This document shows positions 7,901-64,000 of a DNA stretch of 64,000 nucleotides, piece by piece. The DNA comes from Terebella lapidaria. Taxonomy: Eukaryota > Annelida > Polychaeta > Terebellida > Terebellidae. The notes beneath the pieces were generated by a model that was not told the DNA's origin, ran no database searches, and was given only the letters and a program-made list of their open reading frames with translations. Both the position numbers and the translations under genes were made by a program. How positions within the stretch are numbered: position 1 is the first letter of the stretch; every line of letters starts with the position of its first letter. Location of the stretch: positions 10,664,001 to 10,728,000 of the forward strand of contig OX424564.1 in NCBI GenBank assembly GCA_949152475.1. Reading direction: 5' to 3'.

Positions 7901-8179
7901 AGGGACCTTTAGCATCAGCCGAGCTAAACGCTAACCTAAACGTAAACATAAAACGAGATTACGTTTCGCGGTACCGTAACGTCCCACTGCAAAAGACCTT
8001 TAGCAAATGGACCAAATACGGTATTTTGTCCATGGTGAATGCAAGCATAATCCACTGGTCTCTCGATGTGAGTATTGTCGATATCCACTATGGTATTAGC
8101 AATTGTTCATTTGAGCAAGTATATATAAGTTCATTATCAGTATTTAATAAAGTGTTTTACTTGATGACATGTTTTTCAG

Positions 8180-9247
8180 ATGTTTAGAAGAATGAGAAAG
8201 CTCGATCCCTTGGAGGCTATGTTCGTAGATGAACTGGACGACGAAGAATTCTTGGCATACATGGAACAAGTTGAATCTCCAGGCCATTTGCGATGGGCGC
8301 CATTCAACATGGCTAACTTCTCGGAGGAAGAATGCTTCACTAATTTTAGATTCGGGAGGGCTGATGTTGAGCGACTCAGCAGAGCCCTGGAGCTGCCGGA
8401 CACCACGACAGGGCCTAACAGAATTCGGTGGTCAAGCGCGGAGGGGATTTGTGTCTTGCTGCGCAGACTGGCAAACCCAGGACGACTGGCAGATTTAGTG
8501 CCATTGTTTGAGAGACACGAGACAGAACTATCGGTGATCTTCAATGATGTTCTGAAGAAAATACACGACAGATTCGGATACCTGTTGACGGATACAGAGC
8601 AGTCGTGGTTATCCGTTGATCGTCTCCGCGAGTTTGCGGCCGCTACCCACCGCAAGGGTCTTCCCTTGACGAGCTGCTGGGGATTCATCGACGGCACCGT
8701 GATGCCCATATGCAGACCACAACAACACCAGAAAGAGGTGTACAACGGGCACAAACGCGTGCATGCGCTGAAGTATCAGTCGGTAGTCACCCCGAATGGG
8801 ATGATCGCGAACAATCATGTTCGGGCCGATGGAAGGACGGCGGCACGACGCGGCTCTGTTAGCTGAGAGTGGCATCCTACACAAATTCCAGTTCTTTGCG
8901 GCGAACAACACCCCACTTTGTCTGTATGGAGATAGTGCGTACCCTCTGAGTGATCATCTCATCGGCCCCTACAAGGGAGCGAATCGCACACCTGAGCAAG
9001 ACGCCTTCAACAAAGAGATGAGCTCAGGCAGGGAGTCGGTGGAATGGACATTTGGGAAAATCGTTCAAAATTTCGCTTTTGTAGAGACTTCAAGAAAAAT
9101 TTGAAACTTTATCTACAACCTGTAGCCAAGTATTATCGCGTTTCAGCCCTGTTAACTAACTGTCACACCTGCATGTACGGTAGTCAAACTAGTCTTTACT
9201 TTGAAGTTGGTCCTCCTTCATTGGAAGAATACCTCGGGCACGTATGA
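8180..9247 (+). pseudogene. PIF/Harbinger transposase (HARBI1-like), two frameshifts
   Basis: Three consecutive frames together cover a normal-length Harbinger transposase of about 350 residues. The N-terminal part from ATG 8180 has the FRFGRADVERLSRAL helix region and LLRRLANPGRLADLVPLF. The first catalytic Asp is in GFIDGT (residue 171, 8690-8692), followed by YNGHKRVHALKYQSVV. The second Asp is in YGDSAYP (8931-8933), and the catalytic Glu is in SVEWTFG (9042-9044). The C-terminus keeps FKKNL and ALLTNCHTCMYG, ending at TGA 9245-9247. A four-base insertion (8813-8816) separates frame 1 from frame 2, and a two-base GA insertion (within 9084-9087) separates frame 2 from frame 3. All catalytic residues are still encoded, so the decay looks recent. 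TTTTTCAG directly before ATG 8180 could be a splice acceptor, so an upstream exon is possible. The family's known role is cut-and-paste transposition together with the Myb-like partner. Confidence 0.93.
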
Positions 9248-17725: not shown

Positions 17726-18280
17726 ACATCAAGAAGTGAGGAATCAATTGAGACAGCCTCTGTGGACTTTGGACCGAATTAGCCTATATCGTATTGGTCA
17801 GTTCATAATCGGTCATGCTGAGTAAATCTGTGGACTGATAATTTTTCCTTTTGATCAGCTGGTAATCTCTTCATTCAAATGTAATTACTAGTGTACAGGG
17901 GTGAGGTTTTGCTTGAAACACTCGAATAAAGTTTCGTTCAAGCCATCCTGTATTGTGTGGATCAAAATGTCATAAAAATGTGAAAATAATGTGAGAATCA
18001 GATTCTTCATTAAAAGTTTACCTGAAAAATGTATTTACACATGTATGTTAGTGCTCCGATTGATTCTTTCCGTGATCATGCTGGCAACCATTTTGGATTT
18101 CAGAAGGCATGGGGTTCATTCTTTTGTATATTGGGCCTATTAAGTCCAATCATGGTCATCCAAGTGGTTTATAATCATATGAATAGAAATCGTTTATTTT
18201 GTTTGCAAAAGTTCTATTTTTCATCGTTTGAGGGCAGCCATATTGGATTTATGGGTCAAAAGGATGTAAAAATAACATTA
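17726..18280. other. gene-free stretch with a 100-bp repeat also present at 18765-18870
   Basis: A block around 18017-18110 (CCTGAAAAATGTATTTACAC, GTGCTCCG, CATTTTGGATTTC) recurs in diverged form at 18770-18865 on the other side of the MITE. No gene was seen. Confidence 0.5.
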
Positions 18281-18750
18281 TAATGGACCATTTCACAGGG
18301 ACTATTTCTGAAGTCTGGAAACGTAAACATTTTTGGACCAATCAGAAGCGAGAGGCTTTGAATCAGTTTCAACCGTTTTGTGCGCAACTTCAAATGATAA
18401 TTTTGCACATATATACACCACATTTACATCAAATAAGGCTATTACTCGACTCGAATGGCCTGAATAAATGATACAAACACAAACGTTTCTGTAAAATGTA
18501 ACATTTTGTTGTACATGTCCATTTCTTCACTCTCAACGGTTTTTCAGCATATAACCATGTCGCATGACTGCTTGTGCGTGCACGCGGCCGAACACGCGCA
18601 TGCAGCTAAAGATACTTCGGAATCTCGTGTGTGGTTTTACGCTGCCATGTTCTGCCCTCAGTAGACATTGGTTCGTTTTGAATTACGGAAATTACCGAGC
18701 AATGCCAGATATTCATGAGATCCGAGGGGGCCCTGTGAAATGGTCCATTA
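18281..18750. mobile_element. MITE with perfect 20-bp terminal inverted repeats and TA ends, copy 1 (470 bp)
   Basis: TAATGGACCATTTCACAGGG at 18281-18300 is mirrored exactly by CCCTGTGAAATGGTCCATTA at 18731-18750. The outermost TA pair fits a TA target as in Tc1/mariner relatives. It is non-coding. A second copy lacking the left end and an internal 60 bp lies at 28138-28487. Confidence 0.88.
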
Positions 18751-31271: not shown

Positions 31272-32087
31272 AATACCCCGTTGAGTTTTGACGTGTATAG
31301 TTCATATTTAATATCGACAACTGTGATGTAAGGTTAGACAAGATAATGACATAGTTACATGCAAACATCACATTTCCTAACTGTTAGAACGGAGTGATAT
31401 GACCACTCTTACTTGACAAGTTTAATGGTGTACCATTGTCACACAATGGATGTTGAAAGCAGAAATTCATTTGCATGCAGTCAATACCCCGTTGAGTTTT
31501 GACGTGTATAGTTCATATTTAATATCGACAACTGTGATGTAAGGTTAGACAAGATAATGACATAGTTACATGCAAACATCACATTTCCTAACTGTTAGAA
31601 CGGAGTGATATGACCACTCTTACTTGACAAGTTTAATGGTGTACCATTGTCACACAATGGATGTTGAAAGCAGAAATTCATTTGCATGCAGTCAATACCC
31701 CCGTTGAGTTTTGACGTGTATAGTTCATATTTAATATCGACAACTGTGATGTAAGGTTAGACAAGATAATGACATAGTTACATGCAAACATCACATTTCC
31801 TAACTGTTAGAACGGAGTGATATGACCACTCTTACTTGACAAGTTTAATGGTGTACCATTGTCACACAATGGATGTTGAAAGCAGAAATTCATTTGCATG
31901 CAGTCAATACCCCGTTGAGTTTTGACGTGTATAGTTCATATTTAATATCGACAACTGTGATGTAAGGTTAGACAAAATAATGACATAGTTACATGCAAAC
32001 ATCACATTTCCTTACTGTTAGAACGGAGTGATATGACCACTCTTACTTGACAAGTTTAAAGGTGTACCATTGTCACACATGCAGTCA
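31272..32087. repeat. 211-bp tandem repeat, 4 copies
   Basis: Units begin at AATACCCCGTTGAGTTTTGA: 31272, 31483, 31694 and 31906; the last is truncated near 32087. The copies are nearly identical (single C insertion in unit 3, a few substitutions in unit 4), so the expansion is recent. The array lies between the two copies of the 30.2/32.5-kb duplication. Confidence 0.95.
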
Positions 32088-39885: not shown

Positions 39886-40379
39886 AGGTTCCCGGCCCTT
39901 TGGTCCGATAATCTATTGCCGTGGCGTTGCGTCCGTCGTCGTCGTCGTCGTTGTCCATCTACATGTTTACTGTCGAATCCTTCTGAAATTTTTCACAAAA
40001 ATACCTATAAATATTTCAAGAGGGAGGTATTTTTTCGTTTTTAGACTTTCGCAACTTTCTCAAAATGGCGGACATTTTTTCAAGAAAATTAAAATGGCCA
40101 ATTTTGGACTTTGGCAGCCATTTTCTCAAAAACTGTCTGACCACTTTGGAGATTTTTGATTCAAAAGATTCCCCTCATACACCTGTGACGCATATAAGTT
40201 TGATTGCCCTTGAATGCCGATCCGCGTGTGGCAGCCATTTTGATTCTTTTCGACGGGTCCCAAATGGGACTTTCCCATGTTAAATTCTCCTATGCTTTAT
40301 GATGGGAAACATTTTTCCTGATATCTCACTTAATGTTGAGATTAGCGATTAGGAATCAATTGTGAACATGTAGGAAATG

Positions 40380-41830
40380 ATATATGCCGAATATTCTCGC
40401 GACCTTGAATTTGACCTGTGACCTAATTTTCAAGGTCATAGCACAAAATAGCTAATATATCGCTTATTATCAATTTTACAGCTTAGGAATCAATTGTTGA
40501 TGTAGAGCAAATGATGCAGGCTTAATATTGTCATGACCTGGAACTTGATCTTTGACCTCATTTTCAAGGTCAGAGAACAAAATGGCTAATATATCGCTTA
40601 TTATCGACTTTACAGCTTAGGAATCAATTTTAAGCATATAGGCAATGATGTATGCTGAATATTTTGATGACCTTGAATTTGACCTCTGCCCTCATTTTCA
40701 AGGTCAAACGGCAAAATGGCTAATATCTCGCCTATTATCGATTTCACAGCTTAGGAATCAACTGTGGATCTATAGGAAATGATACATGCTGAATATTCTC
40801 GCGACCTTGAATTTGACCTTTGACCTAATTTTCAAGGTCATAGCACAAAATGGCTAATATCTCGCTTATTATCAATTTAGACTTGATTGGGAAACACATA
40901 GGAATTCCAAGCTTTAGACTTTTTATGGGTTATGGATCCCGTTGTAGTGCCAGTGGAATGTTTGCTGAAAACAATATTGATTCTTTTAGTACATTGAAGC
41001 GAAAATATACTCATAGGTTTTTAAACAGACTAAGAGTCTCCACTAATACTATTATACAGTGCCTGCTATCATATGGTCAATATGTACAATTGCCTTCGAC
41101 TACAGAATGGAGTGTATCCATTTATGCAAACCATTTACTCGGTAACCTGTCACTGTCATGTTAATATGTCCTTTTTTCATATGTTTTTATACACTTATAT
41201 CTTGTTATTTTTATATGGACTGCGAGTCTGAAATAAAATGGAGAAAAAATATATATATATTGTCATGACCTTGAATTTGACCTTCGATCTCATTTTCAAG
41301 GTCAGAGCACAAAATGGCTAATAGCTCACTTAATATCAGCTTAACAGGTTAGGAATCAACTGTGAACACATAGGAAATGATATATGCCAATATTCTCCTG
41401 ATTTTGAATTCCTTGACCTCATTTTCAATGTCACGGAAGAAATGGTTATTATCTTGCTTATCATTGACTTCACAGCTAGGGAATCAATTGTGAACACATA
41501 GGAAATGATATATGCTGAATATTGTTATGACCTTGAACTTGACATTGTTTTCGAAGGCAGAGCACAAAATGACTAATATCTTGCTGATTGTTGACTCTAC
41601 AGTTTGTGAACCGATTGTGTACATATAGGAATTGATATAAGCTGAATATCCTCATCAACTTGAATTTGACCTCTGACATTATTTTTGAGGTCAGAGCACA
41701 AAATGGCTAATATCTTGTTTGTTAGCAACTTTATGGCTTAAGAATCAATTGTGTACATATGAAATGATATATGGTGAATATTGTTATGACCTTGAATTTG
41801 ACTTTTGACCTCATTCTTCTTTCAAAATGA
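40380..41830. repeat. 134-bp satellite, left block (interrupted by a LINE 3' end)
   Basis: Units of about 130-140 bp follow the pattern GACCTTGAATTTGACC, TCATTTTCAAGGTCA, AAAATGGCTAATATCTCGC, TTAGGAATCAATTGTG and GAAATGATATATGCTGAATA. This block is more diverged than the right block at 45340-46320. Confidence 0.9.
40879..41258 (+). mobile_element. 5'-truncated LINE 3' end
   Basis: The frame ending at TAA near 41162 contains RCSASGMFAENNIDSFSTLK and LNRLRVSTNTIIQCLL, the typical last segment of CR1/Jockey-clade reverse-transcriptase proteins. A short AT-rich 3' untranslated region with GGACTGCGAGTCTGAAATAA follows, and the element ends in (TA)n at 41250-41258. It sits inside one satellite unit: the satellite reads ATTATCAATTTA before it and TGTCATGACCTTGAA after it. 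Upstream parts of the LINE are absent. Confidence 0.75.
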
Positions 41831-45339: not shown

Positions 45340-46320
45340 TTAAGCCTAATATCTCACTTAATATTGAAATTAGAGACTAGGAATGAATTGTGGACATATA
45401 GGAAATGATATATGCTGAATATTCTCGTGACCTGGAATTTGACTTTTGACCTCATTTTCAAGCTCACAGGACAAAATGGCTAATATCTCGCTTATTATCG
45501 ACTTTACAGCTTAGGAATCAGTTGTGAACATATAGGAAACGATATATGCTGAATATTCTTGTGACCTTGAATTTGACCTTTGACCTCATTTTCAAGGTCA
45601 CATGACAAAATGGCTAATATCTCGCTTATTATCGACTTTACAGCTTAGGAATCAATTGTGAACATATAGGAAATGATATATGCTGAATATTCTCATGACC
45701 TTGAATTTGACCTTTGACCTCATTTCCAAGGTCACAGGACAAAATTGCTAATATCTCGCTTATTATCGACTTTACAGCTTAGGAATCAATTGTGAACATA
45801 TAGGAAATGATATATGCTGAATATTCTCATGACCTTGAATTTGACCTTTGACCTCATTTTCAAGGTCACAGGACAAAATGGCCAATATCTTGCTTATTAG
45901 CGCCTTTACAGCTAGAAATCAATTGTGAACATATAGGAAATGATATATGCTGAATATTCTAGTGACCTTGAATTTGACTTTTGACCTCATTTTCAAGGTC
46001 AACAGGACAAAATGGCTAATATCTCGCTTATTATCGACTTTACAGCTTAGGAATCAATTGTGAACATATAGGAAATGATATATTCTGAATATTTTAATGA
46101 TATTGAATTTGACCTTTGACCTAAATTTCAAGGTCAGTCATTTTATTTTCAAAGTCAGATTACAAAATGGCTTATATCTCGCTTATTATCAAATTTACAG
46201 CTTAGGGGTCCATAGTGAACATATAGGAAATGATGTATGCTGAATAGTTTGGTGATCTAGAATTTAACCTTTGATCCCATTTTCAAGGTTAGAGATATGG
46301 CGATTTCAGTGGTCACCTTG
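45340..46320. repeat. 134-bp satellite, right block
   Basis: About seven units; GACCTTGAATTTGACC starts at 45563, 45697, 45831 and 45963 and at further diverged positions, giving a 132-134 bp period. Perfect TGACCTTTGACCT occurs at 45574-45586, 45708-45720, 45842-45854 and 46112-46124. Confidence 0.93.
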
Positions 46321-47365: not shown

Positions 47366-47378
47366 ACATTGAAATACG

Positions 47379-48803
47379 TTTGGGAGATTCAAACGAGCGC
47401 TCACAAACCCGGGCAGTACTTGGAAAATTATTTTGGACGAAATCATAAACATACCTTTCGATTATATTATACAGTGCAGAAGTAATTGTGTTATCAAAAA
47501 CATGCCTACTTTTTACCAAGAAATATTGACCACTCTACATCAATTAAGCTATCTAAATTATGGTAGGGGACTCGAGTTGAACGAACTAAATCTCTGGTAT
47601 AACCCAAACATAATACTCGACAAGCAATCTATATACTGGAAGAAATGGTTTGATGCAGGTATTCGCATAATGGGCGACCTCTTAGATGAGACCAACAATT
47701 TCCTAACCCTCGAAAAATTTAAACATAAATACAATATAAAATGCAACTTTCTTGACTACGTGCGTCTCCTTGATGCAATACCCAGAGCCTGGCGTAAAAA
47801 ACTAACGTGTAAACCAGATGAGTCTAAACTAGACCCAACAGCATCCTCAGCTGATAAATCAACGAATAACAATATCGTCGACCCCTTACTAACTAAATCA
47901 AGAGAATTGTACTGGGCAATTATCAAGGGGAAAACACTTGCAACAGAGCCAACGTGCATCTCCAGGTGGAATAGATTATATGACATAACATCAGAATCTT
48001 GGCCATCAATCTTCCAAACAGCTTTCCTATCATGTCGAGAAACTTATTTACAGTCATTCCAGTATCGAGTAATTCACAGAATAATCCCCTGTAACGAAAC
48101 ATTATACAACATGAAGGTAGCCAGCACGAACATTTGTACATATAAGCTATGTCATCAAAACGTCACTGACAGTATCCAACACCACCTAGTCACATGTCCA
48201 CCTGTCAAAACTTTCTGGAATACTTTCACCCAGTGGTGGGATAACCTACATCAAAATAAAACTTTGAACATCAGCGAACAAGAAATAATATTAGGTAAAC
48301 CATGTGTCAGTGATGAAGACTATATTGTCAATTTTTGTATTATTCTGGCAAAAAATTACATTCATAACTGTAAACTTAAGGAAACAGATATATTATTCAT
48401 GTCTTTTTTAGCGATATTGAAATGTAAGCTAAGTACAGAAAAAGAGATACACGTTAATCTAGGTAAAGAGTCAATTTTCTATAATCGCTGGGGCCACCTT
48501 TATGACAACTTATAGGTTGACATTCTATATTACCGTATCATGAACCTATCGTATGCCTGCTTATCAGCTCCATGTCGTAGCCTGTATTATTTAGTAATTT
48601 ACTGCTTGGTATAATCGTACACCGCCTACATTTCATATCCTATGATGCTGTATCCCATGATGACATTCCTGTATGCATTTATGTAAAGTTGTACGCCTTG
48701 TAACACAAAATGTATGTATTATGTATGTATGTATGTATGTATGTATGTATGATGTGAAACAAATAAAGGATGCTCGATTTAAAAAAAAAAAAAAAAAAAA
48801 AAA
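47379..48803 (+). mobile_element. 5'-truncated L1/Tx1-like LINE with poly-A tail
   Basis: The element consists of the C-terminal ORF2 portion, a 3' untranslated region with a (GTAT)n tract at 48711-48750, an AATAAA signal near 48764 and a 23-base A tail at 48781-48803. TTTGGGAAATTCA after the tail closely matches TTTGGGAGATTCA at 47380-47392, a probable target duplication with one mismatch. The element starts directly after that. Flanking sequence on the right (48804-49140) belongs to the GACCTTGAA repeat family. Confidence 0.8.
47433..48515 (+). pseudogene. LINE ORF2 C-terminal domain (360 codons, open)
   Basis: The frame is open from at least 47370 to TAG at 48513-48515 and lacks the endonuclease and RT domains because the copy is truncated. 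It contains WPSIFQTAFLSCRETYLQSF, FQYRVIHRIIPCNETL, and a zinc-binding pattern CTYKLCHQNVTDSIQHHLVT followed by CPPVKTFWNTFTQWWDNL. This C-x4-C...H-x-x-x-x-C type arrangement is the RVT-associated zinc finger of L1/Tx1-like elements. Upstream in-frame FGRFKRALTNPGSTWKIILD shows the ATG at 47433 is internal and not a real start. No stop or frameshift interrupts the preserved part, so insertion was fairly recent. Confidence 0.8.
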
Positions 48804-57429: not shown

Positions 57430-59250
57430 CTACAGTCACAGTGACTTTATCAACAACAAAACAACAACATGAAGTTGTGATTCATTTTTCAACTAAATCA
57501 CTTGGCACATCCCTGCTTCAATGTTTGTGTATGCAGCCATGAAAGCCTGGAAATATGTAGTATTCATGTTCGTTTTTAGGAAACAACAAAGAAAAAACAT
57601 TATCAACTAAAATTTTACGAACATAATTTTGCATTATCTTTGCAATAAATTTCTGCAGCAAACTCAGTTATTTCATTTACATTCAACATAAATTAATTTA
57701 CATGTTCCATCGTTGTTTTTGGCAATTTCTGTTTGCAACTGATCACATATCATAAAGAAAAACATACTTGTTATCTGTTCGTACGTGTACTAGTAGTACT
57801 AGTATTACATTACGTGCAGCTGCATTGCTTAGATAGATCTCGTCCGCGTCACAGCACGCCGGGTTGAGAATTCGTATTGTGGAAAATTGGCCAGAATCAT
57901 GATGGCGGCTTCCTCGATTCTAACTGCCGCTTCGATGGCGATTATTCGCGGAATTCTTGACTAATTCACGCGTAACCAATTTTACATCCCTTTTGATCAT
58001 TATTCTTATATTTTGTTGAGTTTTAGATGGATTCTACATCCATACGTCACACCTTATAGTAATAATGAGCAAAATCAGGTTGCTAACGGCAATTCGCATT
58101 CAACGATGCAACGCTGGGGCATTGACATTCTGGTACCTCTGTGCCCACTGAAGTCTGTTGTGCCATTTGAATGTTATCACAAAACAAAGGGAATTCATAT
58201 TATTGATACATCAATCAAAATATTGAAACCATTCATAATTTGAACACTTCCGGAAATGATCCATAAGTTGAGTAGAATAGCGTAGCCTGCATGATCTGCG
58301 TGACGCATGTGCGTACGTATCAAGGTCATCACTGACTCTCAGCTCTTACAAAAAGTGATTTACTTCACGCTAACTTGACACTGATTGCAGTCTATCGTGG
58401 TCACATGACATATTATCTTGCCTAATGAAAGACACGAAACGTTGTAAGTCATGTCGTGGCTGAGATGATTGAAGATGATTGTAAGAATCAATCTATTACC
58501 ACCAATATAGCTAAATTTTGATGATTCCAATAACAAACATGAAATACAACATTTTGCAATAGAAACGAAGCCCGACCAAATACTTTATCAAAAGACACAC
58601 TGGCGACGATAATTCCTCAGTATAGTGGAGGACCTAGCTGAGGTATGTATGCACATAATTTAGGAGAGAATAACTCAACTGTTTTAGGCTAATATGATAC
58701 CAGTGAACAACTTGGATATGTGCCAAATGCATTACACGGGGCGAACAGTCCGAAAATAGTCCATGAGCCCACACCAGGAAATTGTGATTTCGCTGCACCC
58801 CAGAAGGGACCAACATTTATTGGTATCGTTGGAAAGCTATGACTCCCTAGTTTACTAATCTGGTACTTTTGACTCCGTGGGCTTGATCGTTACCATGGCA
58901 ACGGTTACTAATTAACATATACTAGACAATGGCTAATTATTAAGAAAATAATGCATAATCTGCAATAAAATACATATTCTGTTTTCTTCACAGCTGTTCA
59001 GGCAATGAACATCATTTTCAACTTGCGGAATCAGTATCGACATAGTTATTAATGAGGCATGAGTGTTGGTTGAAATTCGACCTGGCAGTTGTCAAGGTGA
59101 CATAATTATATGTGATACCAAGTATTTTCTGAGATCCCAAAATTTACATCAGATTTTTTACTAATGTTTTTGATACATGTCGTTAATTACCTGATTGAAG
59201 AACATAATAACACAGTTATGAAATATATACAATGTACAACGGATGTGCCC
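57430..59250. other. unclassified gene-free stretch with one X-box-like palindrome
   Basis: GTTACCATGGCAAC near 58891 matches the RFX X-box form. The flanks resemble the AT-rich context of the motifs at 1.98-2.54 kb only in general composition. No gene was seen. Confidence 0.4.
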
Positions 59251-59252
59251 AG

Positions 59253-59720
59253 TATTAGAGATTTCTACCTCTCGGTTGTCATGGTAACAGCCCCGGAATA
59301 TAATAAGAAAAAAATGGTTACACTCAACATCTGGTTGTCAAATTCGCTTATGAAAACGCATAGTGTAATATAGTACGTTTTTTCGCTTCATTGTGCTAGC
59401 AAAAAAGTTTGCATTAGGTTTTAAAATATGATTAGTTAAAAACGTAAATAATGTGACGTCATAATCCAATATGGCCGTAGAAATCTCTAATCTTCTATTA
59501 GAGATTTCTACCTCTCGGTTGTCATGGTAACAGCCCCGGAATATAATAAGAAAAAAATGGTTACACTCAACTTCTGGTTGTCAAATTCGCTTATGAAAAC
59601 GCATAGTGTAATATAGTACGTTTTTTCGCTTCATTATGCTAGCAAAGAAGTTTGCATTAGGTTTTAAAATATGATTAGTTAAAAACGTAAATAATGTGAC
59701 GTCATAATCCAATATGGCCG
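59253..59720. repeat. 243-bp tandem duplication with palindromic junction
   Basis: Copy 1 (59253-59478) and copy 2 (59496-59718) share TATTAGAGATTTCTACCTCT, the X-box-like GTTGTCATGGTAAC, and GTGACGTCATAATCCAATAT. Between them TAGAAATCTCTAAT and ATTAGAGATTTCTA form a perfect 14-bp inverted repeat around TCTTC. The copies differ at only a few bases. Confidence 0.93.
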
Positions 59721-61099: not shown

Positions 61100-61340
61100 T
61101 ATAACATTATTGTTAGCTCCCGGGGGGGTATGTATGCATATAGTTGGGGCAGGGACGTGCCGCTGGGATGGGTGTCTTTTTCACGTTTTTGTTACCTGGA
61201 TGGGTCGATACAAAGTCACTGACAAGTACGCCTATGGCCCGAAATTTACACAGATTGGTACCCGGATGGGTCGGTTTGCATTTCAGGTTGGAAAAAAAAT
61301 TATATCGTTAATAATTTTCTGTGATCTAAGCTATTTTACG
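61100..61340. other. unclassified block with repeated GGATGGGTCG
   Basis: GGGATGGGTGTC, CTGGATGGGTCGA and CCGGATGGGTCGG occur at about 61166, 61197 and 61262. This may be an old dispersed repeat. No gene was recognised. Confidence 0.35.
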
Positions 61341-61508: not shown

Positions 61509-63221
61509 ATGGAAGACGCGCTCGCGCGCTTTGTGGCTGAAAACCGTCTTGAAGCCTATGCTGCCCGCTTCGAAGGTAAACATATTGAGTGCATACGATT
61601 TTTGAATATCCAAATAATCATTTAGTTCCCAGAAACCAGCCCCTCTTTACTCATGATCATTCTGTTACACAATCTAAAGTAGCACTTTTAAAGTTAGATT
61701 CTGTTGCCAAGTGCAGATATGGAGAACCTAGTGCAACATCCATTTTCACTGTCCCCGCTGCGGGGCGGGATCAAACAAAACATCCATAAATCTATGAGAT
61801 GAATGAAAGCATTGGTTGATATTTATTGATACATTTATTGAAGGGTGAAAAAAATGGTAAAATGGTTTTGATTTCAAATTTTGTAGAGGAGGAAATGGAT
61901 ATGGACTCCTTGCTTGAGTGTACCGAAGTTGACCTTCATTAATTGATTCCAAAGATGGGGCCATGTAAACGTGCACTGAAGGCACTGAACATGTTGAAAG
62001 CACTCCAAGAACGCAGTGCAAGTGTCGCCTCCGTTGCCTCTGTCAGCATGTCCGAATCTGACACCCAATGTGACCATCCACAGATAGATCACACCACAAC
62101 TAATCAGGTATTTTCAGGCATACTAGACTGTATATTTAACAGGCTATTTATTCAAAATATATGTATAACCCAATACTTTAATTGAGTAAGAATCTTCAAC
62201 AAGAGGCAGATTATCTCTTCCAATTTAAAAAAAAAACTGTGTCTTTGGTCCAGTAACCTATTGGCATGGCGTTGCGTCGGGCGTCCCTCCATCGTCCGTC
62301 CACATTTTTATCTTCAAGGGTTGTGGTCGAATTTTTCTGAAATTTTGCACATAAAATATTTTGCCTCTATAGATGAAATGCTTGCAGATCTATAGAGCTT
62401 ATGTTTGCATTGTAAACATATAGAAAGACATATATGGCACAACTAATGATGACCTTGAACTTGACCTCGGATGACCTTGAGTGTCAATTGTCTGACTCGG
62501 AATGTTTAAATTGGCCTGAGCGGCCTATACGTTTGCACCCAGATATATCTTTGTATTATGAAATATAGAAAATCAAATGCCGCACACATACATGTAATGG
62601 TGACATTTAAGTTCACATGGATGACCTTGATTGGTAAATCTCAAGGTCATATGTTCAAACTGATAACCTTGATTGGTAAAAAAATAACAGGTCTGTTACC
62701 TGCCATTATCCAAACCAAAATTGTCCAGTAACCTACCTTAGCCCCTTAGCCTTTGGGCTAATTTTTTTCACATCTTCATATATTCAGTATCGTGTTGCTA
62801 TGTAGAAATAAATTTCAGTGCATTAAAAAAAATGTTCATGACATTCAGTTGACAAAAAAAACATGTACATGTACCTAATTTTTCACACATGCATGTATGT
62901 GCACCTAACATCATGAACATAATAAATAAATTGACTTGCCATGATGAAACCATTTTCAATGAATGGACTTGGTACCTATCTAATGAGTTCTACTTGTTTT
63001 GTATTTTGTACCTATCTACTCATTTTGTATATGGGATTACTAGTATTTTATATGTTGACCATGATAAATGTAAGAACTCAACTAATCGAATAATTGAACT
63101 TAAATTTCATTATATGTATTTCCAAACACAGGAACAGCCATGTGAACAAACAGTCGAGATATTTCAAGAACATGATGAGAACAACAATGATGATCAGTCT
63201 CAATGTTCCAAGACATATGAG
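61509..63221 (+). CDS. SAM-domain gene, exons 1-3 (continues right; one in-frame stop)
   Basis: Exon 1 (61509-61575) starts at an ATG in good context (AAAAATGGAAG) and encodes MEDALARFVAENRLEAYAAR. Its donor is GAAG then GTAAAC. Exon 2 (61887-62107) follows TTTTGTAG and ends CAG before GTATTTT. Joined in phase they give a SAM-like fold: a first helix with LEAYAARFE, then EEEMDMDSLLECTEVDLH, then LIPKMGPCKRALKALNML, the positions expected for helices 2-5. Exon 3 (63132-63221) follows CCAAACACAG, is 90 bp in phase 0 and encodes EQPCEQTVEIFQEHDENNND and DQSQCSKTYE, with donor GAG then GTTTGT. SAM domains mediate protein-protein or RNA interaction. A TAA at 61940-61942 replaces the usual residue before LIPKMGP, so this allele may be truncated, erroneous or decaying. 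Intron 2 holds a composite-repeat copy. Confidence 0.65.
62246..62766. mobile_element. short composite-repeat family copy inside intron 2 of the SAM gene
   Basis: It starts GTCCAGTAACCTATTGGCAT with GGCGTTGCGTCGGGCG and ends with CCAGTAACCTACC and TTTGGGCTAATTTTTT, matching both ends of the 39886-46396 element. The interior has TGACCTTGAACTTGACC and GATGACCTTGAG but no tandem expansion. Confidence 0.75.
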
Positions 63222-64000
63222 GTTTGTTATTACCGTCCTGCTATAGATCTAAGCTATCAGAGTATTAGCGAAAATATTCCATACCAAAATAGCCACCTCT
63301 GGGCAAAAACATGGGAACAAATCACCCTAGTGGTAGAACTAGTTTCACTGTCATAATAATAAGTTTTCATTATATGTATTTCCAAACACAGGAACAGCCA
63401 AGTGAACAAACAGTCGAGATATTTCAAGAACATGATGAGAACAACAATGATGATCAGTCTCAATGTTCCAAGACATATGAGGTTTGTTATTACCGTCCTG
63501 CTATAGATCTAAGATATCAGAGTATTAGCGAAAATATTCCATACCAAAATAGCCACCTCTGGGCAAAAACATGGGAACAAATCACCCTAGTGGTAGAACT
63601 AGTTTCACTGTCATAATAATAAGTTTTCATTATATGTATTTCCAAACACAGGAACAGCCAAGTGAACAAACAGTCGAGATATTTCAAGAACATGATGAGA
63701 ACAACAATGATGATCAGTCTCAATGTTCCAAGACATATGAGGTTTGTTATTACCGTCCTGCTATAGATCTAAGATATCAGAGTATTAGCGAAAATATTCC
63801 ATACCAAAATAGCCACCTCTGGGCAAAAACATGGGAACAAATCACCCTAGTGGTAGAACTAGTTTCACTGTCATAATAATAAGTTTTCATTATATGTATT
63901 TCCAAACACAGGAACAGCCAAGTGAACAAACAGTCGAGATATTTCAAGAACATGATGAGAACAACAATGATGATCAGTCTCGAGGTTCCAAGACATCTGA
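63104..64000 (+). repeat. 260-bp tandem exon-plus-intron array of the SAM gene (at least 4 units)
   Basis: Each unit has a branch/acceptor region (TTTCATTATATGTATTTCC then AAACACAG), a 90-bp exon and about 170 bp of intron with ACCAAAATAGCCACC. Exons are at 63132-63221, 63392-63481, 63652-63741 and 63912 to the window edge. Acceptors and GAG-GTTTGT donors are preserved in all visible copies. Exon changes are few: CCATGT in the first against CCAAGT in the others. The fourth copy has CGAGGT for CAATGT and CATCTGA for CATATGA. All exons are phase 0-0, so any number can be joined in frame. If the donor is skipped, the frame continues VCYYRPAIDL and stops after about 45 residues, a possible alternative end. 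Confidence 0.85.

What the first reader, a model, noticed from the sequence alone, without database searches (positions are those of the whole stretch)
61509..64000. Tandem array of in-phase 90-bp exons in a SAM-domain gene
Exon 3 and its flanking intron are repeated as a 260-bp unit at least four times, still running at the window edge. Splice sites are kept in each visible copy and the exon is a multiple of three in phase 0, so inclusion of any number would lengthen an acidic Glu/Asn/Asp-rich segment in steps of 30 residues. A locus that could vary protein length by exon copy number or alternative splicing is unusual. The near identity of introns and exons shows recent expansion.
Basis: partly seen in the sequence, partly recalled or inferred. 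Interest (0 to 1): 0.78.

Follow-up and report, generated by a model that had tools for sequence, protein, structure and literature searches.

The report
Fourfold exon inside a broken transposon
Four near-identical copies of a short exon-like segment sit in a gene that turns out to be carried by a jumping DNA element and has two stop signals in its reading frame, so the array is real, but it is probably a relic of exon duplication and not a working protein-length dial.

Summary
The array is real. A 90-bp candidate exon (phase 0-0, same splice signals each time) plus about 170 bp of intron occurs four times: 63132, 63392, 63652 and 63912. It is not open-ended: it stops about 128 bp past the window edge, in a fourth copy whose intron has diverged.

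Two things change the reading. First, the gene has in-frame stops: TAA (61940-61942) inside the SAM domain, upstream of the array, and TGA after the zinc-finger exon. The TAA remains with 0 to 4 exon copies. Second, the gene lies inside an 11.7-kb DNA transposon, 61119 to 72853, with short inverted ends and a perfect 8-bp target-site duplication. Both ends recur elsewhere in the genome; of four other loci with both ends, two have perfect 8-bp duplications. It is the only gene-bearing copy found, apart from one relic of its 3' part.

Best reading: ordinary tandem exon duplication in a decayed transposon gene, with two age layers. Variable protein length is not excluded but unsupported. The SAM + zinc-finger + unclassified 824-aa protein is the more interesting by-product.

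The parts
61111..61118 (.). left 8-bp target-site duplication TGTTAGCT (partner at 72854-72861 in extended window coordinates, L004 1854-1861)
61119..61129 (+). left terminal inverted repeat CCCGGGGGGGT of the transposon (partner ends at 72853)
   Evidence: 4 of 9 other genomic matches start exactly here
61166..61271 (+). subterminal region with the window's only three GGATGGGT words
   Evidence: 3 of 3 matches lie here; the count itself is not above chance, 22 of 100 shuffles have 3 or more
61509..61575 (+). exon 1, start of SAM domain (67 bp)
61887..62107 (+). exon 2, rest of SAM domain (221 bp), ends in phase 0
61940..61942 (+). in-frame TAA inside the SAM domain
   Evidence: SAM_1 match rises from 26.4 to 32.3 bits when the piece behind the stop is included with X at the stop
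63105..64000 (+). whole 260-bp array within the window (ends about 64128)
63132..63221 (+). exon 3 copy 1 (EQPCEQTVEIFQEHDENNNDDQSQCSKTYE)
63269..63357 (.). truncated left part of a dispersed inverted-repeat element (MITE-like) in the intron of unit 1; right edge approximate
63392..63481 (+). exon 3 copy 2
63529..63617 (.). same MITE-like fragment, unit 2; right edge approximate
63652..63741 (+). exon 3 copy 3 (identical to copy 2)
63789..63877 (.). same MITE-like fragment, unit 3; right edge approximate
   Evidence: unit 3 identical to unit 2
63912..64000 (+). exon 3 copy 4 (last; ends at 64001, 3 coding differences near its 3' end)

Best explanation
The array is a tandem exon duplication inside a gene carried by an 11.7-kb DNA transposon (61119 to 72853; 11-bp inverted ends, 8-bp target-site duplication). 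The gene reads SAM domain (exons 1-2), four copies of a 90-bp acidic linker exon, an exon with two Cys/His zinc-finger-like motifs (by eye), then an 824-codon frame that is presumably the transposase core. SHOWN: array, phases, ends, target-site duplication, related ends elsewhere, in-frame stops. INFERRED: an early duplication of exon 3 with its intron, after a small MITE-like element had landed in that intron; later unequal exchange or gene conversion made units 1-3 near identical and overwrote the first half of unit 4; this copy acquired two nonsense codons. In this allele the array most likely has no protein-length output. If transcribed, translation should stop after 40 codons, or restart downstream to give at most a truncated linker-plus-zinc-finger product.
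For: Array and phases. The unit is 260 bp, not a multiple of 3, so it only works as a coding repeat if spliced. Stops. Transposon: TGTTAGCT | CCCGGGGGGGT ... ACCCCCCCGGG | TGTTAGCT. 0 of 300 shuffles of the flanks hold a pair as good (8-bp direct + 11-bp inverted), against 3 real pairs; the 2 other real pairs come from inverted copies of one repeat with a palindromic word. Right end: 10 genomic matches, 9 besides itself, of which 6 stop within query 149-155 where the element ends at 154; the other 3 stop at 127-142. Left end: 10 matches, 9 besides itself, 4 starting exactly at the first TIR base, 7 within 5 bases of it, the other 2 further inside. Of 4 other loci with both ends in order, 2 (C7, C2) show perfect 8-bp duplications (in C2 after moving the boundary by one base); the other 2 have degraded ends that I could not resolve. 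Single gene-bearing copy found: (search counts are lower bounds). Relic of the 3' part on C8, with its right end. Two age layers.
Against: The 824-codon frame is fully open, and its last 344 codons or so differ from the C8 relic with a mild excess of third-position changes (16, 14, 26 of 343 at positions 1, 2, 3; 16 synonymous against 26 non-synonymous single-change codons); that would fit some recent constraint and so a not-quite-dead gene. The two ends share only 11 bp, which alone is weak (BLAST E 0.09). The core has no Pfam match at E up to 1 as a whole and only sub-cut-off ones in pieces (RnlA_toxin E 0.056, MBR1 0.063, Phage-MuB_C 0.21), no PDB match at E up to 1 and no relative in viral contigs, so 'transposase' rests on position inside the element. 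The exon status of the 90-bp unit has no RNA support; its splice sites are middling (donor 93rd, acceptor 87.5th percentile of all GT/AG scored).
Confidence: 0.8

Rival explanations
1. A functional gene with a length-variable acidic linker: exon copy number or splicing changes protein length in 30-residue steps; the stops are assembly errors or rare alleles.
For: Phase-0 exons in every copy and frame kept for 0-4 copies apart from the TAA; open 824-codon core; mild third-position excess against the C8 relic.
Against: Two in-frame stops; gene sits in a TIR/TSD-bounded element; all 4 coding differences among the copies change the amino acid, which shows no sign of constraint, though 4 is too few to test.
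Confidence: 0.08
2. Intronic tandem duplication only: the 90-bp unit is not an exon, and the array is a minisatellite-like repeat in the intron between exon 2 and the zinc-finger exon.
For: Other near-identical arrays of similar unit size lie in the same window, with no exon known to me in them: 31272-32079, 211 bp x 3.8, 99%; 59253-59720, 243 bp x 1.9, 98%. Without splice-score demands, 407 of 500 shuffles of the unit hold some open AG..GT cassette.
Against: With splice-score demands only 14 of 1000 shuffles do; phase fits both neighbours.
Confidence: 0.2
3. A truncated product with function: translation restarts at the ATG at 61955 and ends at the TGA, giving a 337-aa linker-plus-zinc-finger protein without the core, which could bind the subterminal region and repress transposition, as shortened transposases do in other elements (recalled analogy).
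For: That frame is open through all four exon copies and the zinc-finger exon.
Against: No expression data; an open stretch between two stops is expected by construction; no second copy of the zinc-finger exon was found with which to judge constraint.
Confidence: 0.05

Closest known systems
Tandem exon duplication (PMC9013439, introduction and results read)
   Same: Symmetric exon with flanking intron repeated head to tail; splice signals copied with it.
   Different: Sits in a transposon gene with in-frame stops; near-identical introns; no RNA evidence of mutually exclusive or multiple inclusion.
LPA kringle IV-2 copy-number repeat (PMC6314250, passages seen; unit of 5.6 kb with 2 exons, 1 to >40 copies)
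   Same: Exon plus intron repeated as a unit, so copy number would change protein length.
   Different: There the repeat varies between people and yields many isoforms; here 4 copies in one assembly, unit 260 bp, upstream stop codon, no population data.
Cut-and-paste DNA transposons with 8-bp target-site duplications (hAT usually, Zisupton; TSD lengths from passages of PMC12730594)
   Same: 8-bp duplication, short terminal inverted repeats, a multi-exon gene with zinc-finger-like motifs; other copies with both ends but without this gene.
   Different: No hAT or KDZ profile among the Pfam matches of the core; N-terminal SAM domain; ends CCCGGGGGGGT; internal tandem arrays.

Membership tests
Tandem exon duplication | adjacent homologous copies of one exon in the same gene and orientation | tested here: met
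   (given that the unit is an exon)
Tandem exon duplication | splice sites retained and frame-compatible (symmetric phase) | tested here: met
Tandem exon duplication | copies are spliced into RNA | not testable with these tools
   no RNA data
Coding exon VNTR (LPA KIV-2 type) | copy number varies between alleles | not testable with these tools
   one assembly; only one locus with the array found
Coding exon VNTR (LPA KIV-2 type) | open reading frame through the repeat from the start codon | tested here: not met
   TAA at codon 41 for 0-4 copies
Cut-and-paste DNA transposon | terminal inverted repeats with flanking target-site duplication | tested here: met
   2 of 4 other loci with both ends
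Cut-and-paste DNA transposon | dispersed copies sharing the same termini | tested here: met
Cut-and-paste DNA transposon | recognisable transposase domain | tested here: inconclusive
   only sub-cut-off Pfam matches and no PDB match for the core; zf-BED 15.5 bits against a cut-off of 20.6 for the finger exon
hAT / KDZ superfamilies | transposase of that superfamily | tested here: inconclusive
   no such family among Pfam matches of the whole core (E up to 1) or its three pieces (E up to 10); a distant member could be missed
SAM-domain protein | SAM_1 above the curated cut-off | tested here: met
   32.3 bits against 23, with X at the stop; PDB matches to USH1G and ANKS4B SAM domains; broken by TAA

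The most novel reading that the evidence does not exclude
The element represents an undescribed DNA-transposon lineage whose transposase has a SAM domain and a linker of repeated exons, so that exon copy number sets the spacing between a self-associating SAM domain and DNA-binding zinc fingers; intact relatives in other species would use it, and this copy is a decayed example.
Probability: 0.12. Interest if true: 0.6.

Novelty: new member of a known kind. Interest (0 to 1): 0.33.

Why it matters
The case shows that an apparently striking exon array in a 'host gene' can be cargo of a mobile element with stop codons, so such arrays need end-to-end reading before a protein-length mechanism is proposed. 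If the lineage proves new, a SAM + zinc-finger + unclassified core protein in an 8-bp-TSD element adds a domain combination to transposon biology.

Tried and rejected
Open-ended array: rejected; it ends about 64128. A second gene copy to compare exon 3: none found. The DNA search with the SAM-exon region gave 6 matches, itself and 5 of 35-54 bp, all within intron 1; the array gave itself and one other; zinc-finger exon and SAM searches gave only this locus; the C8 relic covers only the 3' part. The C2:28688585 match to the array is not an exon but part of a dispersed inverted-repeat element in the intron. Alternative splicing around the TAA: skipping exon 2 breaks the frame. Family of the core: Pfam gave only sub-cut-off matches, PDB and viral contigs nothing. 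Related element C11:36035767-36043429: longest stop-to-stop frame 121 aa, much of the rest repeats by eye. In one search one row (the donor behind the core) carried a wrong coordinate of mine and is not used. Literature for SAM-domain DNA transposons: 10 of 446 papers listed, 'sterile alpha motif' absent from all 10; 5 of 5; 2 of 2; no listed title or abstract start describes one; I opened none of these for it, and the library lacks most subscription papers and Repbase. The organism was not identified.

Full report
Observation. The window is G000:C11:10664001-10728000 of a 761.6-Mb genome in 438 contigs. I fetched 30 kb that overlap the window's last 3 kb and run on to its right (L003 position = window position minus 61000; L004 position = window position minus 71000). 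The 260-bp array runs from 63105 to about 64128. Exon copies start at 63132, 63392, 63652 and 63912, 90 bp each. Copies 2 and 3 are identical over 260 bp, copy 1 differs at 2 positions (one exonic, Cys/Ser), and copy 4 has 3 exonic differences, all changing the amino acid. Exon 1 (67 bp) and exon 2 (221 bp) together end in phase 0; the exon after the array (67727 on) starts in phase 0; zero to four copies keep the same frame.

Is the 90-bp unit an exon? The unit length (260) is not a multiple of three, so it cannot be a continuous coding repeat. With a recalled splice-site matrix, a cassette at least as good as exon 3 occurs in 14 of 1000 dinucleotide shuffles; without score demands 407 of 500 shuffles have some open AG..GT cassette. 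The thresholds were taken from the observed exon, so 14 of 1000 is optimistic. I consider it likely but unproven that it is or was an exon.

The gene is broken in this assembly. Exon 1 plus the start of exon 2 matches Pfam SAM_1 at 26.4 bits; with the piece behind the stop included, X at the stop, the match spans residues 5-60 at 32.3 bits, and PDB SAM domains of USH1G and ANKS4B match. So the frame is right and the TAA at 61940-61942 falls inside the domain. The zinc-finger exon (two Cys/His motifs by eye; zf-BED only below its cut-off) ends in TGA at 68225-68227, directly followed in the same frame by an open stretch of 824 codons. All tested copy numbers (0 to 4) carry the TAA at codon 41, and skipping exon 2 breaks the frame.

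The gene is cargo of a DNA transposon. TGTTAGCT lies at 61111-61118 and 72854-72861, the only two places beyond window position 58000 in the stretch scanned by that call (to about 81000), and immediately inside are CCCGGGGGGGT and ACCCCCCCGGG; the ends share no more than these 11 bp, which alone would be weak (BLAST E 0.09). In about 6.5 kb of flank on each side, three real pairs fit an 8-bp direct plus 11-bp inverted match, against 0 of 300 shuffles; the two others are inverted copies of one repeat with a palindromic TGACGTCA. A genome search with the right end gave 10 matches, 9 elsewhere, 6 of which stop at query 149-155 (the element ends at 154) and 3 at 127-142. The left end gave 10 matches, 9 elsewhere, 4 starting exactly at the first base of the inverted repeat, 7 within 5 bases, 2 further inside. 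These counts are lower bounds by the tool's own statement. Four other loci have both ends in order. In two of them, C7:42265194-42267997 and C2:36061460-36064258, the 8 bases outside the two ends agree perfectly (GCGTAAGC; GTGGTTTG, the latter after moving the left boundary by one base); the other two have degraded ends that I could not resolve. In 16 loci examined, these relatives share with this element about 70-200 terminal bases (one, L047, about 400) and, in 4 of them, fragments of dispersed repeats, not the gene. The C8 relic matches core residues 481-824 with several stops and an insertion, and what lies behind, and also reaches the element's right end.

History of the array. The intron of each unit contains part of a dispersed element of roughly 260 bp with inverted ends. 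Copy 4's intron is identical to the others up to the edge of that element and then differs at 18 of 78 aligned bases, while the two versions share, by eye, changes relative to the dispersed copies. I infer one insertion, an old duplication, later homogenisation of the exon and its near intron, and recent multiplication of units 1-3. The coincidence between the homogenised tract's end and the element's edge remains unexplained.

Function. The 824-aa frame has only sub-cut-off Pfam matches (RnlA_toxin E 0.056, MBR1 0.063, Phage-MuB_C 0.21, each in a piece of it; none at E up to 1 for the whole), no PDB match and no viral relative in these searches, so calling it a transposase rests on its position in the element. 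Against the C8 relic 56 of 1029 aligned bases of the core differ, 16, 14 and 26 at codon positions 1, 2 and 3: a weak sign of past constraint. The most likely state is a decayed autonomous transposon. A length-tuned protein is not excluded for intact relatives but has no support here.

Literature. PMC9013439 (introduction and results read) cites a 2002 study for about 10% of animal genes with tandemly duplicated exons. PMC6314250 (passages) describes the LPA repeat. PMC12730594 (passages) gives 8-bp duplications for Zisupton and usually for hAT. Searches for SAM-domain transposons (10 of 446 listed, 5 of 5, 2 of 2) listed no paper that its title or abstract start shows to describe one.

Noticed in passing
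window 31272-32079: Another near-identical tandem array, 211 bp x 3.8 copies at 99%; not examined for genes.
   Followed up: no
window 59253-59720 and extended window about 77377-77730 (L004 6377-6730): A 243-bp unit x 1.9 (98%) whose inverted relative lies about 18 kb to the right, on the other side of the transposon.
   Followed up: partly
extended window 71458-72184 (L004 458-1184): A second tandem array, 92 bp x 7.9 copies, inside the same transposon behind the gene; the C8 relic also carries it.
   Followed up: partly
extended window 64276 to about 67570 (L003): The intron behind the array is filled by dispersed repeats with 134-bp internal tandem units; similar arrays (periods 127-155) at window 40349-41802 and 45346-46289, and a relative on C2.
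   Followed up: partly
unit position 138/139 of the array, e.g. window 63269: The identical part of copy 4 ends within a base or two of the edge of the MITE-like insert; why a homogenised tract should stop there is unexplained.
   Followed up: partly
C8 relic, L012+L013 reverse complement 17890-18390: Two right ends of the transposon face each other about 270 bp apart, with inverted copies of the flanking word GTTGGCGTT.
   Followed up: no
window 8168-8863 and 47373-48512: Stop-to-stop frames of 232 and 380 aa that look like remnants of other mobile elements (label recalled, not tested).
   Followed up: no
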